DNA of 64,000 nt, from contig NC_030857.1 of NCBI RefSeq assembly GCF_000208745.1, positions 1,058,188-1,122,187 on the forward strand. Reading direction: 5' to 3'. A program made the translations under genes and the position numbers. The notes beneath the pieces were generated by a model. It did not search any database. It was not told where the DNA came from and was given only the letters and a program-made list of their open reading frames with translations. The DNA is from Theobroma cacao. Its lineage: Eukaryota; Streptophyta; Magnoliopsida; Malvales; Malvaceae. Positions 16,137 to 55,541 of the stretch are shown here, piece after piece. Numbering within the stretch: the first letter of the stretch is position 1; each line of letters opens with the position of its first letter.

Positions 16137-17741
16137 ATGATGATAAGGAAGCTGTGTCCTAATCTTGATAAAAAAGATGGCCTGGAGACCGTCCTGGAAG
16201 TGCCCATACCTGAAGAAATGTACACCAAGATGGGCAGCAATGCAGCTTTGCGGTGGCAAAACATGCGTGCCTTGATGAAAGCTCAATCAGCTTTTGACAA
16301 GTCAACCCATCTCCAAGCTAAATCAGACAATGAGTTCTTGGCGTTGCTTAAGATTGTTGGCGCCCCTCTCATCCCTTTCCAGGTTCATTTGGAGAATTAC
16401 ACACTTTCAGGTCCCCTGAATTCGAAAGATTGTTCTATTGTGAGTACAACTCTTCCATATCTTCCTCAATTCCTGGAATATATATATATATATATATATA
16501 TACACACGCACACAGACATAGTACATGATAACAAGATTCTTGTTGTATGAATAGGAAGCTTCTACTGCAAAATATATAGTACAGCAGTATGTAGCCGCTA
16601 CCGGCGGACATTTGGCGTTGAGTTCAATGACCAGCATGTATGCAGTGGGACAGGTGAAAATGCAGGGGTCAGAGATGCAGCAGGGTGATGATAGCGTGCA
16701 TACCCGAGGCAACTGCGAGGTCGGCGGGTTTGTATTATGGCAAAAGAACCCGGATTTGTGGTATTTAGAACTAGTTGTTTCTGGTTTCAAGGTCAGTGCA
16801 GGCAGTGACGGTAAGGTTGCCTGGAACCAGTCGTCCTCACAACCTGGTCAGGCAAATAGAGGCCCTCCACGACCCCTTCGCCGATTCTTCCAGGTAATTT
16901 TCCTCGTTAGATAGTTTTGTTGGTACCTTGATGTAATGAATTTGGTCTGACGGATGTTAGAACCTGAATATTATGATAGAAATCAAGGATGGAGCCGGAT
17001 TCATGATTGTGGAATAATGCCGTTACAAATTGTAAAACTTTTACCTCTTGTAGTTGGCCCCAAAGATTTTCTTATTCTAATTAGTTCTTTAATCAAATCA
17101 AAAACATTGTGAACCCATTATTTCTGGTACCTTGGGCCACGAAAACATATTCACAGAAATAATATGACTGGAACTTTCGTATGGTACTGTCTTATGCTGC
17201 ATTGAATCTAACTTCCATGATATTCACCCTGTGGATTCCTCAGGGCCTGGACCCCAGGTGCACTGCTAGCTTATTCTTAGATGCGGTTTGCATAGGAGAG
17301 CAGGCTATTAACAACGAAGATTGTTTCGTACTCAAGCTTGAAACTGCTGCAAACGCCCTCAAAGTGCAGAGTTCAGCGCAGACAGAAATCATCCATCACA
17401 CAATCTGGGGGTACTTCAGCCAAAGAACAGGACTCCTCGTCAAGTTCGAGGACACGAAGCTGGTCAGGATGAAACCCGTCAAGGGAAACGACAGTGCGTT
17501 TTGGGAGACCAGCGTGGAGACGGTGGTCCAAGATTACAAGTACATCGATGGCATCAACATAGCACACAGTGGGAAGACGATCACGACACTTTACAGATAC
17601 GGGAAGTCATATAATCAGAAGAGGAAGATTGAAGAAACTTGGAGGATCGATGAGGTTGATTTCAACATTTGTGGGTTGTCCAATGAAACCTTCCTGCCTC
17701 CAGCTGATCTCAAGAGAGAGCAAGAAGGTGGAGAGCAATGA
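16137..17741 (+). CDS. DUF620 family protein
   Basis: Three exons, 16137-16439, 16555-16893 and 17244-17741, join in frame to 379 residues. The N-terminus has KLCPNLDKKDGLETVLEVP and MGSNAALRWQNMRALMKAQ, which are hallmarks of the plant DUF620 family. Further matching motifs are YVAATGGHLALSSM, GGFVLWQKNPDLWYLELV, GLDPRCTASLF and the C-terminal WRIDEVDFNI. Biochemical function of the family is unknown. No signal peptide or membrane segment is visible, so the protein is probably soluble. Two adjacent in-frame ATGs (16137 and 16140) could start translation, and I report the first. Intron 1 is short (115 bp) and contains a TA/CA microsatellite. Confidence 0.92.
16477..16515. repeat. TA/CA microsatellite in DUF620 intron 1
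   Basis: About twelve TA units followed by CA-type units, close to the 5' splice site of a 115-bp intron. Likely polymorphic. Confidence 0.9.
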
Positions 17742-17949
17742 TAAGCTTAGATTTCCTCTTCCTTTTTTTTCCTTGTAGAAGTTGAAACACAAAGGAAAGT
17801 CGAAGAAAAATGCGTGTACATATAGGTAAATTTGAGAATCGCTTCATTTTTCCATGGCTAATTAAGCTTTTCTGAATTCTTTGTTGGTGGTAAATTTATC
17901 TTGCTATCCCAAGACTAGAACCATAAGCCTACAAAAAACAGTTTAACCT

Positions 17950-18245
17950 CTTGGGCCTGGTGAGGCCCATTTGGCCCATTTTCCTATATTATAGGGGTCC
18001 TTTCAGCCCATTTTCGGAACAAAATCCTGCTAAAGGCCCAAATAAACGGCGCCGCTAAAGTCAACAATGGACACTTCTCAGGAAACAAAAAAAAAAAATG
18101 CTCACTTTGAAAACCCTAAATCCTGTAAACTCTATTTAACCGACTAAAGAGCCCAAGCTTCTTCTCAGCTTGCCGCCTCTGAAGATTTCTCTCTCTCTCT
18201 CTTGATTTTCTTCTCCCTGCACTTGACTTTGGTTAGGAAAACCCT
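17950..18245 (+). promoter_or_regulatory. Site II / telo-box promoter of the snoRNA locus
   Basis: Four site II-type elements (GGCCCA or AGCCCA) lie between ~17966 and 18040. Telo-box motifs AAACCCTAA near 18113 and AAACCCTAG near 18240 follow. This pairing is the known signature of plant snoRNA, ribosomal-protein and other translation-related promoters. Directly downstream lie three C/D-box snoRNAs. Confidence 0.6.
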
Positions 18246-18524
18246 AGCTGGAAATTTCCATCTTATTTTAAATTTCGATTCCTAAAATCATATCAAATTA
18301 CAATTTTTTTTCTTTTCTTGCATCTGTTTACCCTCTCCTTTTTGAAGCAAAACTAAGTAATGCTTAAGGAGATATAACGGATGCAGATAGTGAGAGGTTA
18401 GCTTACCAGCCCATTGCATTATCTTTATTTGCCTTGGTGTCAAATGGACTTACCGACATTTCTTTTTGGAAGAAAAATTACTGTTGTTTGCTTAGTTTAT
18501 AAATCTAAGTAGAAGCTTTCGTTG

Positions 18525-18610
18525 TTGGCAAGGGATGAATGCTTATCTTATCCTACACTCTGATGAACCGTGTTGATTCAATTTTCCGCTTATTGATATT
18601 CTGATGCCAA
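18525..18610 (+). ncRNA. C/D-box snoRNA A (double guide to 25S rRNA)
   Basis: A perfect 6-bp terminal stem, TTGGCA (18525-18530) with TGCCAA (18605-18610), encloses a degenerate C box GGATGAA, an internal D' box CTGA (18560-18563) fused to a TGATGA-like C' box, and a D box CTGA (18601-18604). The D guide at 18585-18599 is a 15-base perfect complement of the 25S rRNA segment ATATCAATAAGCGGA near its 5' end. The D' guide at 18547-18558 complements GUGUAGGAUAAG, a conserved 25S sequence. By the D+5 rule the targets are a U in AUAUC (about U44 by my recollection of Arabidopsis numbering) and the second U of GUGUAGG. rRNA sequences are from memory. Confidence 0.85.
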
Positions 18611-18665
18611 TTTTTCTTCTAATTTTCTCTTTTTATTTGATTTTTTGGTTGGAATTTTGAAAGTG

Positions 18666-18748
18666 AAGGCAGATGATGTAAAGTTTCTTATCCTACACAC
18701 TGAAACATGAATGTAGACTGATAAACTCCGCTTATTATCTGATGCCTT
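18666..18748 (+). ncRNA. C/D-box snoRNA B (paralogue of A)
   Basis: Terminal stem AAGGCA (18666-18671) with TGCCTT (18743-18748) is again perfect, but its bases differ from snoRNA A. The C box is ATGATGT (18673-18679), D' is CTGA (18700-18703) and D is CTGA (18739-18742). The D' guide (18687-18698) is the same 12 bases as in A. The D guide CTCCGCTTATT (18726-18736) complements AATAAGCGGAG of 25S rRNA, shifted relative to A, so D+5 falls four bases further along (about U48). The pair looks like a local duplication in which one guide kept its target and the other moved. Confidence 0.85.
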
Positions 18749-18829
18749 TTCTTAACTGAGTTTAAGATTCTCTTTTTTTTTACCATTTTCTTTTGTCAAT
18801 TTTTTAATTTTATTTGATTTTAATATTAT

Positions 18830-18920
18830 TTTCAATGATGAGAAGAAGCAGACGGGCGGTCTGAATCTGATGCCATGTTGTATGTCTGCAATTTTCCACA
18901 TGTGGAATTTCTCTGAGTTT
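18830..18920 (+). ncRNA. C/D-box snoRNA C (U43/snR70-like, 18S guide)
   Basis: C box ATGATGA at 18835-18841. A ten-base guide GACGGGCGGT (18851-18860) directly precedes CTGA (18861-18864). The guide is a perfect complement of ACCGCCCGUC, the universal sequence near the 18S rRNA 3' end. D+5 points to the C in ACCGC, the position methylated by U43 in animals and snR70 in yeast. The following TCTGATGC can serve as C'. I take the terminal D box as CTGA at 18913-18916. No clear terminal stem is seen, so the ends are approximate. Confidence 0.7.
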
Positions 18921-18999
18921 CAATTATTTCAATCTTTCTTTGTTTTCTGATTTCTTTTCTTTTGTGAACTTTGTAGTTTAAAGCTGAAAGATTTACCTT

Positions 19000-19086
19000 T
19001 TTATGCAATGATGAAGTTGCTTGAATTATGTCTGGACATATGATATTAGTCTATGATTAGCTATAGCTATGCATCTTCTGAGCAAA
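19000..19086 (+). ncRNA. Possible fourth C/D-box snoRNA, orphan
   Basis: C box ATGATGA at 19008-19014 and D box CTGA at 19078-19081 have correct spacing. They are flanked by only a 3-bp potential stem (TGC/GCA). I could not match either guide region to rRNA or U snRNA sequences I remember, so this may be chance. Confidence 0.25.
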
Positions 19087-20030
19087 GTATTATCAATCTA
19101 TATGGTTGTATGGTGAAATAACACTTGAAATAGATTTGGGTTTGTGAAGTTCTTACTTATGGACTTGCAGCACTGATGGTCCTTGGTTTTATTTGGAATG
19201 TATCTTGAGTTTAGTCTGCTTGTTTGTGGTAAATACTTTGTGTTTAATGCTAGACAAATATCAGGTTTTGTAAAACGTTTGGTGAACTTGTTATCAACAG
19301 CCTTAAGAGTATTCGTTAAGGTGCTATTTATAGAAATTTCTTTCATATAAAATGCAGTTGTTCACAATTATTGTGATGATTTTCTATGCATTGAATGTAG
19401 ATATTTCTTTAAATAGTAATTTTAACAATTTGCTCTTATGCATTTGGTAACAATTTATCATGCTTCTACATGGATTAAGGCAGAGGACCTTATGACCATG
19501 TGGATGTTGTCCATAAGTTTTTTGAGTTGAGGATTTTAAGATTGTGTAGACTTTTGTAATTCTGGTTGATCAACACCACTGGATTTTCAGCTTTCTAAAA
19601 TCTTTAGGAATATATATATTAGTTTGGGAGCGCATGTTTGATTTTAAGGCTATTTCTAGATGTGTATTTTTTTTTATAACAGGAGATTTGAAGTTCTGAT
19701 AAGCTTGGAATGATCAAGCTAGTTGATACGTGGCCGAGTTGGCTGGATGGCAAAGTGTGGTGCGGGATTTTTGGATCAGTGGTGCAAGGCTGTGGAATTT
19801 TTCTCGCCGCTGCTCTGCATCTCTAAATTGTTTTGGGTTCACATGGGTCTGGTATGGATTTAGTGGGGTGTATTGCAGTGATAGGGTACTTTCAAGTAGC
19901 ACATAGGTTGTGGTTGGTATGCTGCTGTATGTGTAGTACTTTCCCTGCATTTTAATGGATGTAAAGACATTCCATATTTGGTTTACCATCCAATTAAAAT
20001 GCAAGAAAAGTGCCCCACATGTAGTATACT

Positions 20031-21424
20031 AAACTCAAACTTAGTCTTAGTTAATTGTAGATTAATTTAATTGCTTTTATTTTAGCATTGTGTTTAACTG
20101 AACAGATCAAATGTAATTCAATGGAGATCTATTAATGAATTATTGTTGATATTGGCTTTATGTTTTATTGCCCTTTCTATCACCTTCTTTGATTGATTAT
20201 CTTTGTATATTTCATGCTGTGGTTTGATGCTTTGATATGCTTTGGGTGGGTGGCTTCTTTTACTGACCACATGAATGGATGTAAAAGGCTAATCTGTTTA
20301 AAAGATTATGAACTCGACGAAGTCAACAGTTGGGGCCCAATGATGCAGAACAGACAATTGATGTTAAATTTTTGCTACTGTAAAATCCCAGCTTTATCTG
20401 GCTATGAATGCTTTGTTCCCCCATTGGAATCACAACGGTAGTTGGTTGGTCAAGTGCTTATCCAGAACAATGTGGAAACCACAAACCCACAACTGTAAAG
20501 TGCTTGCCTAACTGCTGGATAAAGCATTATGAGGCTTAGTGGGATCAGGATGGTCTCGCCTATAGTAGAAATGGATGGTCAAATCTAGATCTTCTTACCC
20601 TTGGATATGGTGCTGTAAATCTAAGACAAAGACTGTTGTCCTTTGTGTTGCTGTAATCTTCGTTTGTCTTGGTGGTTTCTACATCATATCTATCCTCAAG
20701 GCAGTCAAGCAGTGGGGACAATGATATGCCCTTTGATCTTGCTATTTACCTGTAAATATTAGCATATGGTTATGGGACTTAGCTTTCCCACCTGCTTTGT
20801 ACTCTGTTAGTAGCTCTTGGAATAAAACAAATAACCCACACTACATAGAAATTTGCCAAAAAAATTACTTAAACATTGTCTTGTAAGACCAAACTAGTTC
20901 AAAGACAGACATTGATTCACTATGGTGGCGTTTGTGTTACTTTGAGATTGTGTACGAGAAAAAGGACAATGTAATGTTCTTCAACATTACGCTTTCTGTC
21001 TTTCATTAAGTCACCATTTAAACATTTATTAACACTAATCATGTTTTAACCCCTATAATTAAACGCATACTTAAGAGCAGCGTCACGATGTAAAAGTCAA
21101 CCTGAGGAAACGCGGTGGTCAAAGGCTAGTAAGACATTAAAGTCGTATGCAACGGCGCCTCGTTGGACCCACCAAGAGCAAAAACAGCGTCGGTTGCGAA
21201 AAGATCTAAAACCAAGCTTTCGTGGCTAAATCTCATGTTAATGGTTTAATTACTACAAAGTCTTCTCTCCCTCCCATTATTATGACACTTCACCTACCTT
21301 TCTGCTCTCTTTTCCACTCCCTCTAATAATAACATTCAATTCTTTCTCTCTGCTCTCTATACCCATCACTGGTTCTAGCAAAAGCAGGCAGGCAGCTTCA
21401 AAAAGTTGTGGTTGAGAGCGGAGA
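20031..21424. other. Spacer upstream of the DUF1195 gene
   Basis: No supported gene. An ORF at 20193-20441 has no recognisable product. The final ~200 bases contain the pyrimidine-rich 5' leader of the DUF1195 gene. Confidence 0.4.
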
Positions 21425-41251: not shown

Positions 41252-41323
41252 TTCCGTTGCCGGGGATCGAACCCGGGTCTCCTGGGTGAAAGCCAGACAT
41301 CCTAGCCACTGGACGACAACGGA
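41252..41323 (-). tRNA. tRNA-Glu (UUC)
   Basis: A 72-nt cloverleaf on the minus strand. Acceptor stem TCCGTTG pairs with CAACGGA, discriminator A. The anticodon loop CTTTCAC carries TTC. The T arm CCGGG-TTCGATC-CCCGG matches the box B consensus. A TTTT pol III terminator follows within 10 nt. Confidence 0.97.
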
Positions 41324-41607: not shown

Positions 41608-41679
41608 CTCCGTTGCCGGGGATAGAATCCGGGTCTCCTTGGTGAAAACCAGACATCCTAGCCACTGGACGACAACGGA
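41608..41679 (-). pseudogene. Decayed tRNA-Glu copy
   Basis: Same 72-nt layout as the gene 356 bp away, with five changes. Loop position 32 is C to T; an anticodon-stem C to A gives a mismatch; G to A at the base of the T stem breaks a pair; G57 to T damages box B (TTCTATC); the discriminator is G. The acceptor stem is intact and a T-run follows. It is probably inactive or poorly transcribed. Confidence 0.85.
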
Positions 41680-50753: not shown

Positions 50754-53700
50754 CTACTTAACTGAAGCACTTATGCCTTTGAAAAGATCTCTGGTAATCT
50801 CATCTAGGAGTCCATTAAGCACATACTTTTCCACATCCCTTATAACATCATCTTTCTCAAGGAATGCAAACATCACGCAGTTCCAACCCAAATCCCACAT
50901 ACAATTCACATCTGGTTCCTTGCTGTAGACATCGGCCTCAAGCATCTTCGGTAGGTAGTCTTCGAAGGGAGAATCTTCTCTCCCATCCCTTCCATATAAC
51001 TTCAACTTATCAAAGTCTTTACACATTTGCTTGACCAATTCATCCAAGGATTTTGCTTTTTTTGAAGTGATGGATACCTTCAGGAATGGATGAACGCTTA
51101 GTTCCTGCCTTCTGCCTTTCCTTTTCATTACTTCGTAGCCACAGTCTAAAACGAGCTTGCTCTCTTGATTGTGATAGTCGAGGCCGTTTGCATGAAGAAT
51201 GCTGATGGGAATGTTGAGTTTGAAAAGCGCCTCTGCTGTGTTCATGAATAATTGACTTTTCATAAGTATCTGCTTCAGCTGATTTTCACTCTCTGTCAGT
51301 GGCTCTGGCATCTCTGATGTATAAGTTCTTTGGGTTTGTGATTGTGGGGTGTAAGAGATTTCTGTGCTCTCTTCTTGAGTTCCTAAAAAACAATGAACTT
51401 TGGAAGATAAGTTTCTTCATTCTTCCCCTTCCCAAATCACCAAGCCTACTAAAAACATAAAAGGAAAAAATCGGATTGCTGCTATTCCTATGGCCTTAAT
51501 TGTTAGAAAAGATCAGAAGAAAATTAAGGTTTCCTTAAGAGGGCGGTGTAATACACATGCAGCCAACTTTTTATGGTTCAGTCTCCATATGGTAGAGGTG
51601 GACATCTTATGCATTTTTTTTTATATGTGCTTGTGTTGTTGTGTGTGCATTAACACCTATTTAAAATTTGTAGAAGTTGGTGTAAGCTCATCTTTATAGA
51701 ACCATTTGTTAAATGAAAAAGCATTTCATGAGTTGTAATGGGAAAATGTGAGAAAAGCAGTTGAAAATGCAAAATTGTACTTACGTCGTAGAAGATCAGT
51801 TGCATTGTTCCTAACTGTGTGTTCTTTGGCTCTACCAAGATCAGGTTCTTGATCTTGCTGTTCATTTGTAGCCATTGGCACTGTATTTTGACACTGCATA
51901 AGATCAAAAGAGTTATATGCGCTCCAAACAGAATGAAAGTGGCTTCATTTGTCTGAAATAATTGCTTAATAATTGCAGTAATTGTGATCTTACCCTATCT
52001 TTTGGAGCTAAAGCTTGTGATTCATTTAGGCTTTGGCTATCATCTTCTACAGGACTGCACAAAATTGAATTTTTCTGAGCTGCTTTCTGTAGCTCTTGTG
52101 CCACACTTGATGGTTGTAGGCTTGCTACTGACCTTTTGGATCTAGTGATCTCTGTTTCCACTTCTTCGAACCTGCTGGCTTTCATTTGATCTGCTTCTCT
52201 TGAGATAGCAAGTTTCTCCTGCCTTGTCTGTTTCCCCTCTTGCAAAATGGAACTCTGATGCTTCAGCATCCTCGGCAAGTTAGTAACACTTCCACCTTTT
52301 TTGGTCATTACTTCATCGACCTTCCGAGGAACCTCAAGTTTGTGCCCTTTGGCACTCTTTGCCTTCATTGTCGTTTGAACTTGAGGTGGTTTCTCATCCA
52401 CAGCAAACAGGATACGAGCTTTTGCTGATTCAGATTCTATATCTCCTCGAGAGTAATGCTGACTGGATTTTCTGTTTATTGAATCTTTAATTTTGAAGTT
52501 TAAGTTTATTGAACTTCTATCTCTGGCAGGATTTTCTTGGTGCCTACCATCTGGGAATCCATTGAATTGTGTTGCATCAGTATATTCGGTGGAGCCTGTC
52601 CTAGTAGTTGCTGCGTGGCTCATTTGTGGCTGCTTGTTTTGCAAATTCGTTGCACCAGACATTGGTTTGGAGAAATTACCAGATACTGGTTCATTTCCCT
52701 TTTGTTTCTTCCCCTGCAATTTCTGTTTAGAACTATGTTGTTCCTTCTCTTCTGTTCGACGCTTTTTCTCTTGAAGCTCAGATTTTTGGAGCATGTGTAC
52801 GTGTTGAAATCCATGATTATTTTGCAGCTTTTGTTGATTGCCTAGGAGAAGCTTGTTAGAATATCTGTTTTCCATATGATGCATGCTTTCACTGAACTCT
52901 GTTGTTTCTTTCAGTGTAAGTGCAGATTCTGATCTTTTATGCATATATGGTATCATCTGTTGCATCTCATCCTTGAAAACTGGTTCTTTGGATTCACTTC
53001 GCTCAGCACTCCTGTGTTCCCTGTGCTTTATATTATCCTGTTTTCTGTCCTTTTCTTGATTTTCTTTTCTACTTCCGTAGTTATAGTTCAATTGGGCATG
53101 ATCACTTTGTTGTTTGTCTATCGTGATGTTGGCCTTTCTCGAACTTGTCACTGATTTCATGTCTTCCAAGTCCTTTCGAGGTGGCAGTTTGTCGTGGACA
53201 GCAACCCTTGTGCCACCATTTCTAGTTGTCAAAGTTTTTCCTGCTGGTGATGTAACTGTATCCTGAATCAATGGAATCTTGCTGGCTAGTATTACCTTCT
53301 GTTTTACTGGTGGGAGAACGGGGTTTGCAGTATCATTTGTCCTTTGTCCAGCCTTTTTGGTAGTTTCCCGTGCAGGTTTCTTCGTGATCACCCCTTCTAC
53401 CTTTTGCTTTCCAGACTCCTTCTGTGAGGTAACCCTTGAATCTACATTTCCTGGCAGTTCATTGAGCCCCATCAGTTTCGCAATTACATTTGGAATTCTC
53501 GACTTTTCTTGTTTGGACGGCAATGAACTTGAGTGATTCTGTTCTGAGAATGCAGTGAGATTTTTAATGTCTGGACCATAGCTAACAGATCGCTTGTGAG
53601 AATGTGAATTTGAGACAGCTAGAACTTTCTTCTCATGCTTGGAATTAGTAACCTCTGGAGAGTAAGTAAGAGCTGCCAGCCTCAGCTTGAGATCAGTTCT

Positions 53701-55541
53701 TGCAACTTCTTGAATGTCATTATAGTTCCTTGATGGTCTGTCAAAAGAAAACGTCGGCCTATCCAATTGCTTCTGATCAGCTATTCTGACAGTGTTCTCA
53801 TCCTCCTCCTCCTCCTCTAGCAATGTTATCCGACTTTTTCTCTGTGGCGTTGTTAAGTACTCTGAAGCTTCCTGCATGTTTACAAGCATCCTTAGAGACT
53901 CCTCCAAATCCATTGCTCCTTTCAATAGTTCCCGCCCAATTTCTATTGAATATCTGTCGAAGTTAAGGCCGTTAGAGCAGGCTCGGAGGATCTGATTTAA
54001 CTTTTGTGCACCCCTTGATATTTCTTCGATATGGAGATGAGAGAGAGTAGGGAGTTGGCTACTTGAAGGTTGATGCCTACTTACTACACTGTTTCTTCTT
54101 TCCATCTTCCCATAATCCATCTGTCTCCTACCAATGTTATGCAGAAAACTGAACACTGAGCTATTGCCTGAAGAATCTGTTCTGCTTAGTTTTCCTCCAT
54201 TTTCAAGTGCAAAAGCAAGGGCCATTGACAGACCTCCTATTTGTTGTGACTTCTGGCCACTCCCAAAAGGAACAATCTGATTTGATACCTGCCCAGTGGT
54301 TACTAATTTACTGCCCCCACTAGACCTGTTTTGTGCACTTCCAGCTCTAAAACCAGTCTGCAGGAAACCAAACATTTTAGCTAGATGAAATCATGATATC
54401 TGATTAATCTGTTGTATGAACTGATTACTTCCACTGGAGCTTTGGAAACTTACAGTTTTGAGTGGTTTCGGTTCCCTGGATGATTTATAACTTCTCTTGG
54501 AGTAAGCATATGCATCTGCCAAAATATGCAATAAAAGGAACAGAGAATATTATGCATTTGAGTTGCTTGTTGATGGGGACTTTGCTAGCTAGCTAAAGCT
54601 CTGTTATCAAGAGTCTAGCCTTATACAGGTTTAATTACTTAAACATCACCAAACTGATGAAAGTTCTCCTGGAGTAACCATATTTAAAAGAAAATCTGTG
54701 TTTTGCCTTCAGATATCACCTGTCTATGTCTTACCCCCCCTACCCCGTTTAATTCAATTAAACATAAAGTCATCTCGAAATTCTTTCCTTTCTGTTCTTA
54801 TACGAAGTAAACAGTTCTCTCATCTTTTACGTTTGACTTTTACGTGCCATGTTTCCAAAAAATAGCTGGAGATGATTAGTCTGGAAGAGGGTAGCAGAGT
54901 GAAGAAGCAATGCTGTATAACCTATACCAGACAAATCCAGATTGCCCTTAAAAGAAAAGTTCAACAGATTTTACACTCTTTGAGCTTCCTCTATCAACGT
55001 CTACAAGAGAGAAGGATAATTGCTTAATCACGTGGCTGGTTTTTGTCAGGTAAGTGAATTGAATTGCTATTCGCTTTCAAACTTAATTTCTTTGTTCTTT
55101 AACTTGTTCTTAGATAAAAGCAGGGGAAAAGAGTACCTCCAGAAGGAAAGAAGAAAGGCTAGTCGTTGGTGCTAGAATGACACACTTCAACAGTTGAATG
55201 CATGTGCATGATTTGTGTATTTGTGTGAGTTCATTAGCATTAAATTAGCTTCGAAATGTGCATTAGTAAGTGATGCCTCCTGCTTTTCTAATGTCTCGAA
55301 GTCATTCAATAAGAAACATGATCCACAAAAATGGTTTATTACAGGGTTTTAACTGATAAAGATGGACACTGGAATTCTTTGATGCATGCTCCACCATGCG
55401 TGTTTATTGCAGAGAGTTCAGGAAATGCTCACCTGCAACCATTGGATTTGTACCCTTTGAGTTCTGAGATGCAGCCATCCGCTCCTTCCGCAACCGGAGG
55501 TCATCTAACAGCTTCTGTGCAAAATCTGATCTCTTGGCCAT
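50754..55541 (-). CDS. DUF4378-domain protein (TRM/LONGIFOLIA-related architecture)
   Basis: Five exons join in frame: 55541-55433, 54515-54454, 54357-51994, 51893-51785 and 51382-50754, giving 1090 residues. The N-terminus MAKRSDFAQKLLDDLRLRKE is encoded by a separate exon after a 917-bp intron. Starting instead at the ATG inside the large exon (54375) would lose 56 residues and read through the CTGCAG acceptor at 54358. The long middle is Ser/Lys/Gln-rich and includes the VIAKLMGL motif (~360), the DUF3741-associated short motif also present in TRM proteins. The C-terminal ~190 residues form a DUF4378 domain, with LFKLNIPISIL, DCGYEVMKRK, MWDLGWNCVMFAFLE and a final VEKYVLNGLLDEI. TRM proteins organise cortical microtubules; whether this one does is inferred only from architecture. 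Confidence 0.88.

What the first reader, a model, noticed from the sequence alone, without database searches (positions are those of the whole stretch)
18525..18748. Paired double-guide C/D snoRNAs aimed at the same two 25S rRNA regions
Two adjacent snoRNAs share an identical 12-base D' guide for GUGUAGGAUAAG. Their D guides overlap on the 25S 5' region AUAUCAAUAAGCGGAG but are offset, so the predicted methylated base moves by four positions. Each has its own perfect 6-bp terminal stem with different bases (TTGGCA/TGCCAA versus AAGGCA/TGCCTT), which suggests the stems are maintained. This looks like duplication followed by guide divergence.
Basis: partly seen in the sequence, partly recalled or inferred. 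Interest (0 to 1): 0.8.

Follow-up and report, generated by a model that had tools for sequence, protein, structure and literature searches.

The report
Two neighbouring plant rRNA-methylation guide RNAs
A plant chromosome stretch, probably from a Theobroma (cacao-like) tree, holds two neighbouring small guide RNA genes of the known snoR16 kind that are predicted to mark the large ribosomal RNA at one shared site and at two sites four bases apart; all three sites are known in plants, so this is mostly an ordinary but neat example of how guide RNAs diversify.

Summary
Two box C/D snoRNA genes lie at 18524-18611 (sno1) and 18665-18749 (sno2); both pass Rfam's cut-off for snoR16, RF00296, and they were the only two hits of a crude C/D scan of both strands of the window. 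The D' guides are identical and pair 12 bp with plant 25S rRNA. The D guides pair 15 bp (sno1) and 11 bp (sno2) with the 25S 5' region, their D+5 targets four bases apart.

By family and register these are the sites mapped in Arabidopsis as Um2456, Um44 and Um48. sno2 is a typical snoR16 (Um48 + Um2456). sno1 joins the Um2456 guide to a Um44 guide, which in Arabidopsis belongs to another RNA, SnoR120. Site II/Telo-box elements and a downstream U43-like candidate fit the known plant snoR16-U43 cluster.

Duplication with guide divergence is the likeliest origin but rests on shared functional parts: outside them the genes show no detectable similarity. Its direction, and the relation to snoR120, are inferred. 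Expression and methylation in this species are untested. Verdict: new member of a known kind, modest interest.

The parts
18524..18611 (+). sno1: box C/D snoRNA gene, snoR16-like; predicted guides for 25S Um2456 (D') and Um44 (D)
   Evidence: Rfam RF00296, 50.9 bits, cut-off 45; pairing; scan hit
18525..18530 (+). sno1 terminal stem, 5' arm TTGGCA (pairs with 18605-18610 TGCCAA)
   Evidence: sequence; 6-bp stem in scan
18532..18538 (+). sno1 C box GGGATGA (one departure from RTGATGA, at its second base)
18547..18559 (+). sno1 D' guide CTTATCCTACACT; 12 WC pairs + 1 G-U with plant 25S
18560..18563 (+). sno1 D' box CTGA
18570..18576 (+). sno1 C' box GTGTTGA (6 of 7)
   Evidence: read from sequence
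18582..18600 (+). sno1 D guide; 15 WC pairs (18 with G-U) with the 25S 5' region, D+5 on the base taken as U44
   Evidence: same guide as RF02406 snoR120 consensus
18601..18604 (+). sno1 D box CTGA
18605..18610 (+). sno1 terminal stem, 3' arm TGCCAA
18665..18749 (+). sno2: box C/D snoRNA gene, typical snoR16; predicted guides for 25S Um2456 (D') and Um48 (D)
   Evidence: Rfam RF00296, 81.1 bits, E 5.9e-13
18666..18671 (+). sno2 terminal stem, 5' arm AAGGCA (pairs with 18743-18748 TGCCTT)
18673..18679 (+). sno2 C box ATGATGT (one departure)
18687..18699 (+). sno2 D' guide CTTATCCTACACA; 12 WC pairs with plant 25S, same D+5 base as sno1
18700..18703 (+). sno2 D' box CTGA
18711..18717 (+). sno2 C' box ATGTAGA (5 of 7)
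   Evidence: read from sequence
18726..18738 (+). sno2 D guide; 11 WC pairs with the 25S 5' region, D+5 on the base taken as U48
18739..18742 (+). sno2 D box CTGA
18743..18748 (+). sno2 terminal stem, 3' arm TGCCTT
18835..18916 (+). U43-like C/D snoRNA candidate: C box ATGATGA 18835-18841, D' guide for 18S ACCGCCCGUC and D' box 18861-18864, D box perhaps 18913-18916; no terminal stem at the boxes
   Evidence: 10 WC pairs with 18S of a eukaryotic contig; no Rfam family above cut-off
17952..18246 (+). promoter-like stretch: site II elements at 17952, 17964, 17973, 18005, 18035, 18150 and Telo-boxes at 18111 and 18239; none of the paper's TATA patterns in this stretch
   Evidence: element definitions from PMC4660826

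Best explanation
The locus is a plant snoR16-U43 type snoRNA cluster behind Telo-box/site II promoter elements. It carries two double-guide C/D snoRNAs of the snoR16 kind. Each RNA is predicted to assemble a fibrillarin snoRNP whose D' guide directs 2'-O-methylation of 25S U2456 and whose D guide directs methylation in the 25S 5' region: U44 for sno1, U48 for sno2. The likeliest origin is an old duplication of a snoR16 gene, after which four extra bases between the kept guide core (CCGCTTATT) and the D box of sno1 moved the measured fifth base by four positions while lengthening the pairing. Shown here: the boxes, stems, guides, pairings, offset and family match. Taken from papers: the three sites are methylated in other plants. 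Inferred: expression, methylation in this species, duplication and its direction.
For: Rfam snoR16 matches for both genes above the curated cut-off. Pairing of all four guides and the four-base shift of the D+5 base. Published plant 25S primers contain the D' target; the D target is in two eukaryotic rDNA contigs and, with one differing base, in Rfam's eukaryotic LSU consensus. Arabidopsis assignments: U44 SnoR120, U48 SnoR16, U2456 SnoR16.1. Um44 and Um48 are mapped in Arabidopsis, tomato and tobacco; Um2456 or its equivalent in Arabidopsis and tomato, not mapped in tobacco; the Um48 equivalent is listed for Ostreococcus and Um44 is not, which fits Um48 being the older site. A snoR16-U43 cluster is reported for Arabidopsis and rice, and the C box of a U43-like candidate begins 86 bases past the end of sno2. 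Seven of the window's 39 site II elements start in 17952-18408, and 2 of its 7 Telo-boxes (AAACCCTA, either strand) at 18111 and 18239. The stems differ at two pairs by changes on both sides.
Against: No expression or methylation data exist here for this species. Outside functional elements sno1 and sno2 are not detectably alike (z 0.14 to 0.9 over four scoring schemes and two maskings), so a shared origin rests on guides, boxes and the inner stem, which are partly forced by the common rRNA target. sno1's C box departs at the base that, from recall, is flipped out and bound by Snu13/15.5K, which may weaken it. sno1 folds no better than its shuffles (z -0.44; sno2 z -3.18). None of the TATA patterns of PMC4660826 occurs between 17701 and 18371. 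By a crude formula, 1.9 CTGA-adjacent 11-base matches to rRNA are expected in the window by chance, so sno2's 11-bp D guide is convincing through the family match rather than by length. Comparison with other plants' loci was not possible (genome search did not complete).
Confidence: 0.82

Rival explanations
1. sno1 is not an offshoot of the neighbouring snoR16 but the ortholog of Arabidopsis snoR120: an old, separate Um44 guide that in this lineage still carries (or has gained) a Um2456 D' guide.
For: Its D guide through the D box is letter for letter that of the RF02406 snoR120 consensus (GCUUAUUGAUAUUCUGA). Residual similarity outside elements leans to snoR120: 23 to 85 of 2000 full shuffles reach the score over four scoring schemes and two maskings, against 106 to 722 for the snoR16 consensus and 394 to 898 for sno2. 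sno2 shows no such leaning to snoR120 (968 of 2000).
Against: sno1 scores 26.2 bits against the snoR120 cut-off of 55, and 50.9 against snoR16's 45. The snoR120 consensus has no Um2456 guide. The leaning weakens to 146-401 of 2000 with block shuffles, and the shared guide is forced by the same rRNA target.
Confidence: 0.3
2. sno1 is a decaying copy: transcribed at best, but not stably assembled, because its C box has lost the second base of the consensus.
For: C box GGGATGA; no special folding stability.
Against: Both guides, D and D' boxes, a C' box and a perfect 6-bp stem are intact. Its D guide is longer (15 WC pairs) than sno2's (11). A decaying copy need not have kept the two outer stem pairs complementary.
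Confidence: 0.12
3. The two genes came to share guides by convergence on the same rRNA sites, without a common snoRNA ancestor.
For: No similarity outside elements; guide sequence is dictated by the target.
Against: Same two rRNA regions in the same D'/D order, the same inner stem GGCA/TGCC, an identical T before the D' guide that does not pair with rRNA, and only 53 bases between them; both match one Rfam family above cut-off.
Confidence: 0.06

Closest known systems
snoR16 (Rfam RF00296; Arabidopsis SnoR16 / SnoR16.1)
   Same: sno2: same inner stem, boxes and both guides (Um48 and Um2456). sno1: same stem core and D' guide, above the Rfam cut-off.
   Different: sno1's D guide is shifted four bases to Um44; its C box departs by one base.
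snoR120 (Rfam RF02406; Arabidopsis SnoR120)
   Same: sno1 has the same D guide, register and D box (Um44).
   Different: The snoR120 consensus lacks the Um2456 D' guide; sno1 scores 26.2 bits against a cut-off of 55.
snoR16.1-U43.1 cluster of Arabidopsis / U43a-snoR16 cluster of rice (PMC5122169)
   Same: snoR16 next to a U43-like guide; plant snoRNA promoter elements upstream.
   Different: Here two snoR16-type genes precede the U43-like candidate, which has no Rfam match above cut-off. Gene order and copy number in the published clusters were not checked.
Plant snoRNA isoforms made by gene duplication (Barneche et al. 2001, as cited in PMC7671301)
   Same: Duplicated guides that target new rRNA positions.
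   Different: Here the change looks like a four-base register slip at the guide/D-box joint. The 2001 paper itself was not read.

Membership tests
Box C/D snoRNA | C box RTGATGA and D box CTGA close to a terminal stem | tested here: met
   Both with one departure in the C box, exact CTGA, 6-bp stem; the only two hits in 64 kb, both strands
Box C/D snoRNA | guide of about 10 or more bases next to D or D' pairing with rRNA by the D+5 rule | tested here: met
   12, 12, 15 and 11 WC pairs; plant 25S letters for the D' site from published primers, D site letters from eukaryotic, non-plant rDNA
Box C/D snoRNA | stable RNA bound by fibrillarin | not testable with these tools
   no RNA data for this species
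snoR16 (RF00296) | covariance-model score of at least 45 bits | tested here: met
   81.1 bits (sno2) and 50.9 bits (sno1)
snoR16 (RF00296) | D guide for 25S U48 and D' guide for U2456 | tested here: inconclusive
   sno2 meets both; sno1 meets the U2456 guide but its D guide points to U44
snoR120 (RF02406) | covariance-model score of at least 55 bits | tested here: not met
   sno1 26.2 bits
snoR120 (RF02406) | D guide for 25S U44 | tested here: met
   sno1 D guide
Plant snoR16-U43 cluster | U43 (18S Cm1645 guide) next to snoR16 | tested here: inconclusive
   10-bp D' guide with D+5 on the C after ACCG and a C box, but no Rfam match above cut-off and no terminal stem at the boxes
[quoted passage not shown]
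   six site II at 17952-18155 and two Telo-boxes at 18111 and 18239, by the definitions in PMC4660826; no TATA pattern of that paper between 17701 and 18371

The most novel reading that the evidence does not exclude
sno1 is a surviving intermediate in the birth of a land-plant methylation site. A snoR16 (Um48) copy acquired Um44 by a four-base slip between guide core and D box while keeping its Um2456 guide, and the separate snoR120 of Arabidopsis descends from such a copy that later lost the Um2456 guide. If so, new rRNA methylation sites can arise by a single small indel that re-measures an old guide.
Probability: 0.3. Interest if true: 0.42.

Novelty: new member of a known kind. Interest (0 to 1): 0.22.

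Why it matters
It gives a compact case in which two guides share one site and differ at the other by exactly the number of extra bases before the D box, so the origin of a plant methylation (Um44) from an older neighbour (Um48) becomes testable by comparing rosid genomes. Otherwise it adds annotation for known guides in a Theobroma-like plant.

Tried and rejected
Whole-genome search for further copies, such as a separate snoR120 or more snoR16 genes: the genome search was asked in the same form nine times and never answered. So copy number and comparison with other plants remain open.

Viral-contig scans for the plant 25S D' region and the 25S 5' region found nothing. Scans for the guides beside CTGA found 4 contigs in all (3 and 1). 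None of the 4 has an exact TGATGA in the 30 bases upstream, and I judge them chance matches in a very large collection. A plasmid search with a conserved rRNA stretch found nothing.

Duplication traces in the flanks: a self-comparison aligned 18610-18644, after sno1, with 18785-18821, after sno2, at 81% over 37 columns (E 0.008, low-complexity filter off). Both stretches are T-rich, so I do not count this for or against duplication; no duplication boundary was found.

Similarity outside functional elements. In a first test shuffles reached the sno1 score in 1200 of 2000 (against sno2), 88 of 2000 (snoR16 consensus) and 2 of 2000 (snoR120 consensus). With the TTTT beside the guide and the outer stem pairs also held fixed, with and without the C' box, the counts were 394-898, 106-722 and 23-85 of 2000, and with block shuffles 839-1661, 551-1742 and 146-401. 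I treat the snoR120 leaning as a hint only.

Chance of guide matches: a crude formula gives 7.4 expected CTGA-adjacent 10-base matches to rRNA in the window, 1.9 of 11 bases, 0.46 of 12 and 0.007 of 15. So the 10-bp U43-like guide and sno2's 11-bp D guide are convincing by place, boxes and family, not by length alone.

Other Rfam matches: of 14 matches with E up to 5 in 17700-20400, only the two snoR16 matches reach their cut-off.

Papers. Passages only: PMC8053127, PMC4660826, PMC7464842 (no snoR16 or snoR120 itself in the passages shown, the hits there concern snoR160), PMC7671301, PMC3292489, PMC4388706 and PMC7645714 (3 of the 13 papers listed). PMC11542601: passages, abstract and section 6 in full. 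PMC5122169: passages and section 6 in full. PMC8351944: term search, no occurrence of the sites or names. PMC1370220 is not held. What I searched before calling the pair unreported: 'snoR16' in 6 papers (passages seen in 3 of the 6), 'snoR120' in 1, 'snoRNA' with 'Theobroma cacao' in 47, of which 10 were listed and none read. Sequences of these genes in supplements or snoRNA databases were not searchable, so an automatic annotation may well exist.

Full report
What is there. Window 18524-18611 and 18665-18749 (+) hold two box C/D snoRNA genes, called sno1 and sno2 here. Both match Rfam RF00296 (snoR16) above its curated cut-off of 45 bits: sno2 with 81.1 bits (E 5.9e-13), sno1 with 50.9 bits (E 8.3e-6). 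A mechanical scan of both strands of the 64 kb for a C box with at most one mismatch, CTGA 50-119 bases downstream and a stem of at least 6 bp returned 2 hits, exactly these two. The inner four pairs are shared with each other and with the Rfam consensus; the outer two pairs differ on both sides. Each C box departs from RTGATGA at one base: sno1 GGGATGA, sno2 ATGATGT.

Targets. Two published plant 25S qPCR primers (a grass 25S, PMC3292489; Spirodela 25S rDNA, PMC7645714) give the plant 25S sequence AGAGGTGTAGGATAAGTGGGAGCC. Both D' guides pair 12 Watson-Crick bases with it and measure the same U (GUG-U-AGG). A third primer with this stretch, in pigeonpea, is labelled 18S in its table. The D target region GCATATCAATAAGCGGAGG is in two rDNA contigs found among bacterial assemblies; one of the two, L002, was checked and matches Rfam's eukaryotic LSU model, whose consensus reads GCAUAUuAaUAAGcGGAGG there. 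That the plant letters are the same I know from recall. sno1's D guide pairs 15 Watson-Crick bases (18 with G-U), sno2's 11, and the measured bases are four apart. The numbers U44, U48 and U2456 come from the family assignments in the papers below and from the register of the Rfam consensus guides, not from a 25S of this species.

Known sites. RiboMeth-seq in Arabidopsis lists 25S U44 (SnoR120), U48 (SnoR16) and U2456 (SnoR16.1) (PMC8053127 Table 1). A review table lists Um44 and Um48 in Arabidopsis, tomato and tobacco, Um2456 in Arabidopsis with Um2458 in tomato and not mapped in tobacco, and for the alga Ostreococcus, where sites are predicted from snoRNAs, only the Um48 equivalent (PMC11542601 Table 2). 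So sno2 is a normal snoR16. sno1 combines the snoR16 D' guide with the guide that in Arabidopsis sits on SnoR120: its D guide through the D box equals the RF02406 consensus GCUUAUUGAUAUUCUGA, although the whole gene scores only 26.2 bits there against a cut-off of 55.

Surroundings. An 820-aa reading frame elsewhere in the window (51913-54375, -) is 98% identical to a Theobroma cacao protein over 97% of its length; the next best of the 120 hits listed, of 319 found, are other Malvaceae at 82% or less. The window is therefore from Theobroma or a very near relative. Upstream of the snoRNAs lie a DUF620 gene ending at 17741, then six site II elements at 17952-18155 and Telo-boxes at 18111 and 18239. 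These are the elements that PMC4660826 describes for plant polycistronic snoRNA genes; none of that paper's TATA patterns occurs between 17701 and 18371. Downstream, at 18835-18916, a C box and a 10-bp D' guide for 18S ACCGCCCGUC with D+5 on the C after ACCG fit U43, whose Arabidopsis form is assigned to 18S Cm1645 (PMC11542601 Table 1). PMC5122169 reports snoR16-U43 clusters in Arabidopsis and rice. No Rfam family reaches its cut-off there, there is no terminal stem directly at its boxes, and the fold, no better than shuffles (z 0.36), shows only a weak outer stem. I therefore call it a candidate. Whether the cluster is an independent transcript or lies in an intron of a non-coding host was not settled.

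Origin. The two D guides share CCGCTTATT, and sno1 has four more bases before CTGA, which exactly explains the four-base shift. The direction Um48 to Um44 is favoured by the wider spread of Um48 and by sno2's near-consensus sequence. However, when guides, boxes and stems are held fixed, the other positions of sno1 are no more like sno2 than shuffles (z 0.14 to 0.9). Against the snoR16 consensus z is 0.3 to 1.7, and against the snoR120 consensus 1.9 to 2.5, weaker under block shuffling. As a yardstick, sno2, an undoubted snoR16, also shows little residual similarity to the snoR16 consensus (z 1.57), so the test has little power. Duplication is thus the best reading, but old, and its link to snoR120 is open. 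That plant snoRNA duplication yields isoforms for new sites is stated in PMC7671301, citing Barneche et al. 2001 among others (the 2001 paper not read).

Verdict. The genes belong to a named family in a named cluster type and aim at known sites. What is unusual is the joining of a Um44 guide and a Um2456 guide on one RNA; the Arabidopsis table gives these to different RNAs. The missing evidence is RNA and methylation data from this plant, and comparison across rosids, which the unanswered genome searches prevented.

Noticed in passing
19890-20060 (+): A long imperfect hairpin about 1.1 kb downstream of the snoRNAs folds at -55.1 kcal/mol (z -6.0). No other copy in the window at E 0.01; best Rfam match mir-5014 on the minus strand, 28.8 bits against a cut-off of 101. 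A miniature transposon or a miRNA-like precursor; plant snoRNA-miRNA genes are known (PMC4660826).
   Followed up: partly
18835-18916 (+): U43-like C/D snoRNA candidate with a 10-bp guide for the 18S ACCGCCCGUC region; no Rfam match above cut-off.
   Followed up: partly
41252-41323 and 41608-41679 (-): Two tRNA genes with 284 bases between them (61.7 and 41.0 bits).
   Followed up: no
L001 and L002: Two bacterial assemblies in the genome collection (labelled Coleofasciculus MAG and Planomonospora parontospora) contain contigs with eukaryote-type rDNA, probably contamination; confirmed with Rfam's eukaryotic LSU model for L002 only.
   Followed up: no
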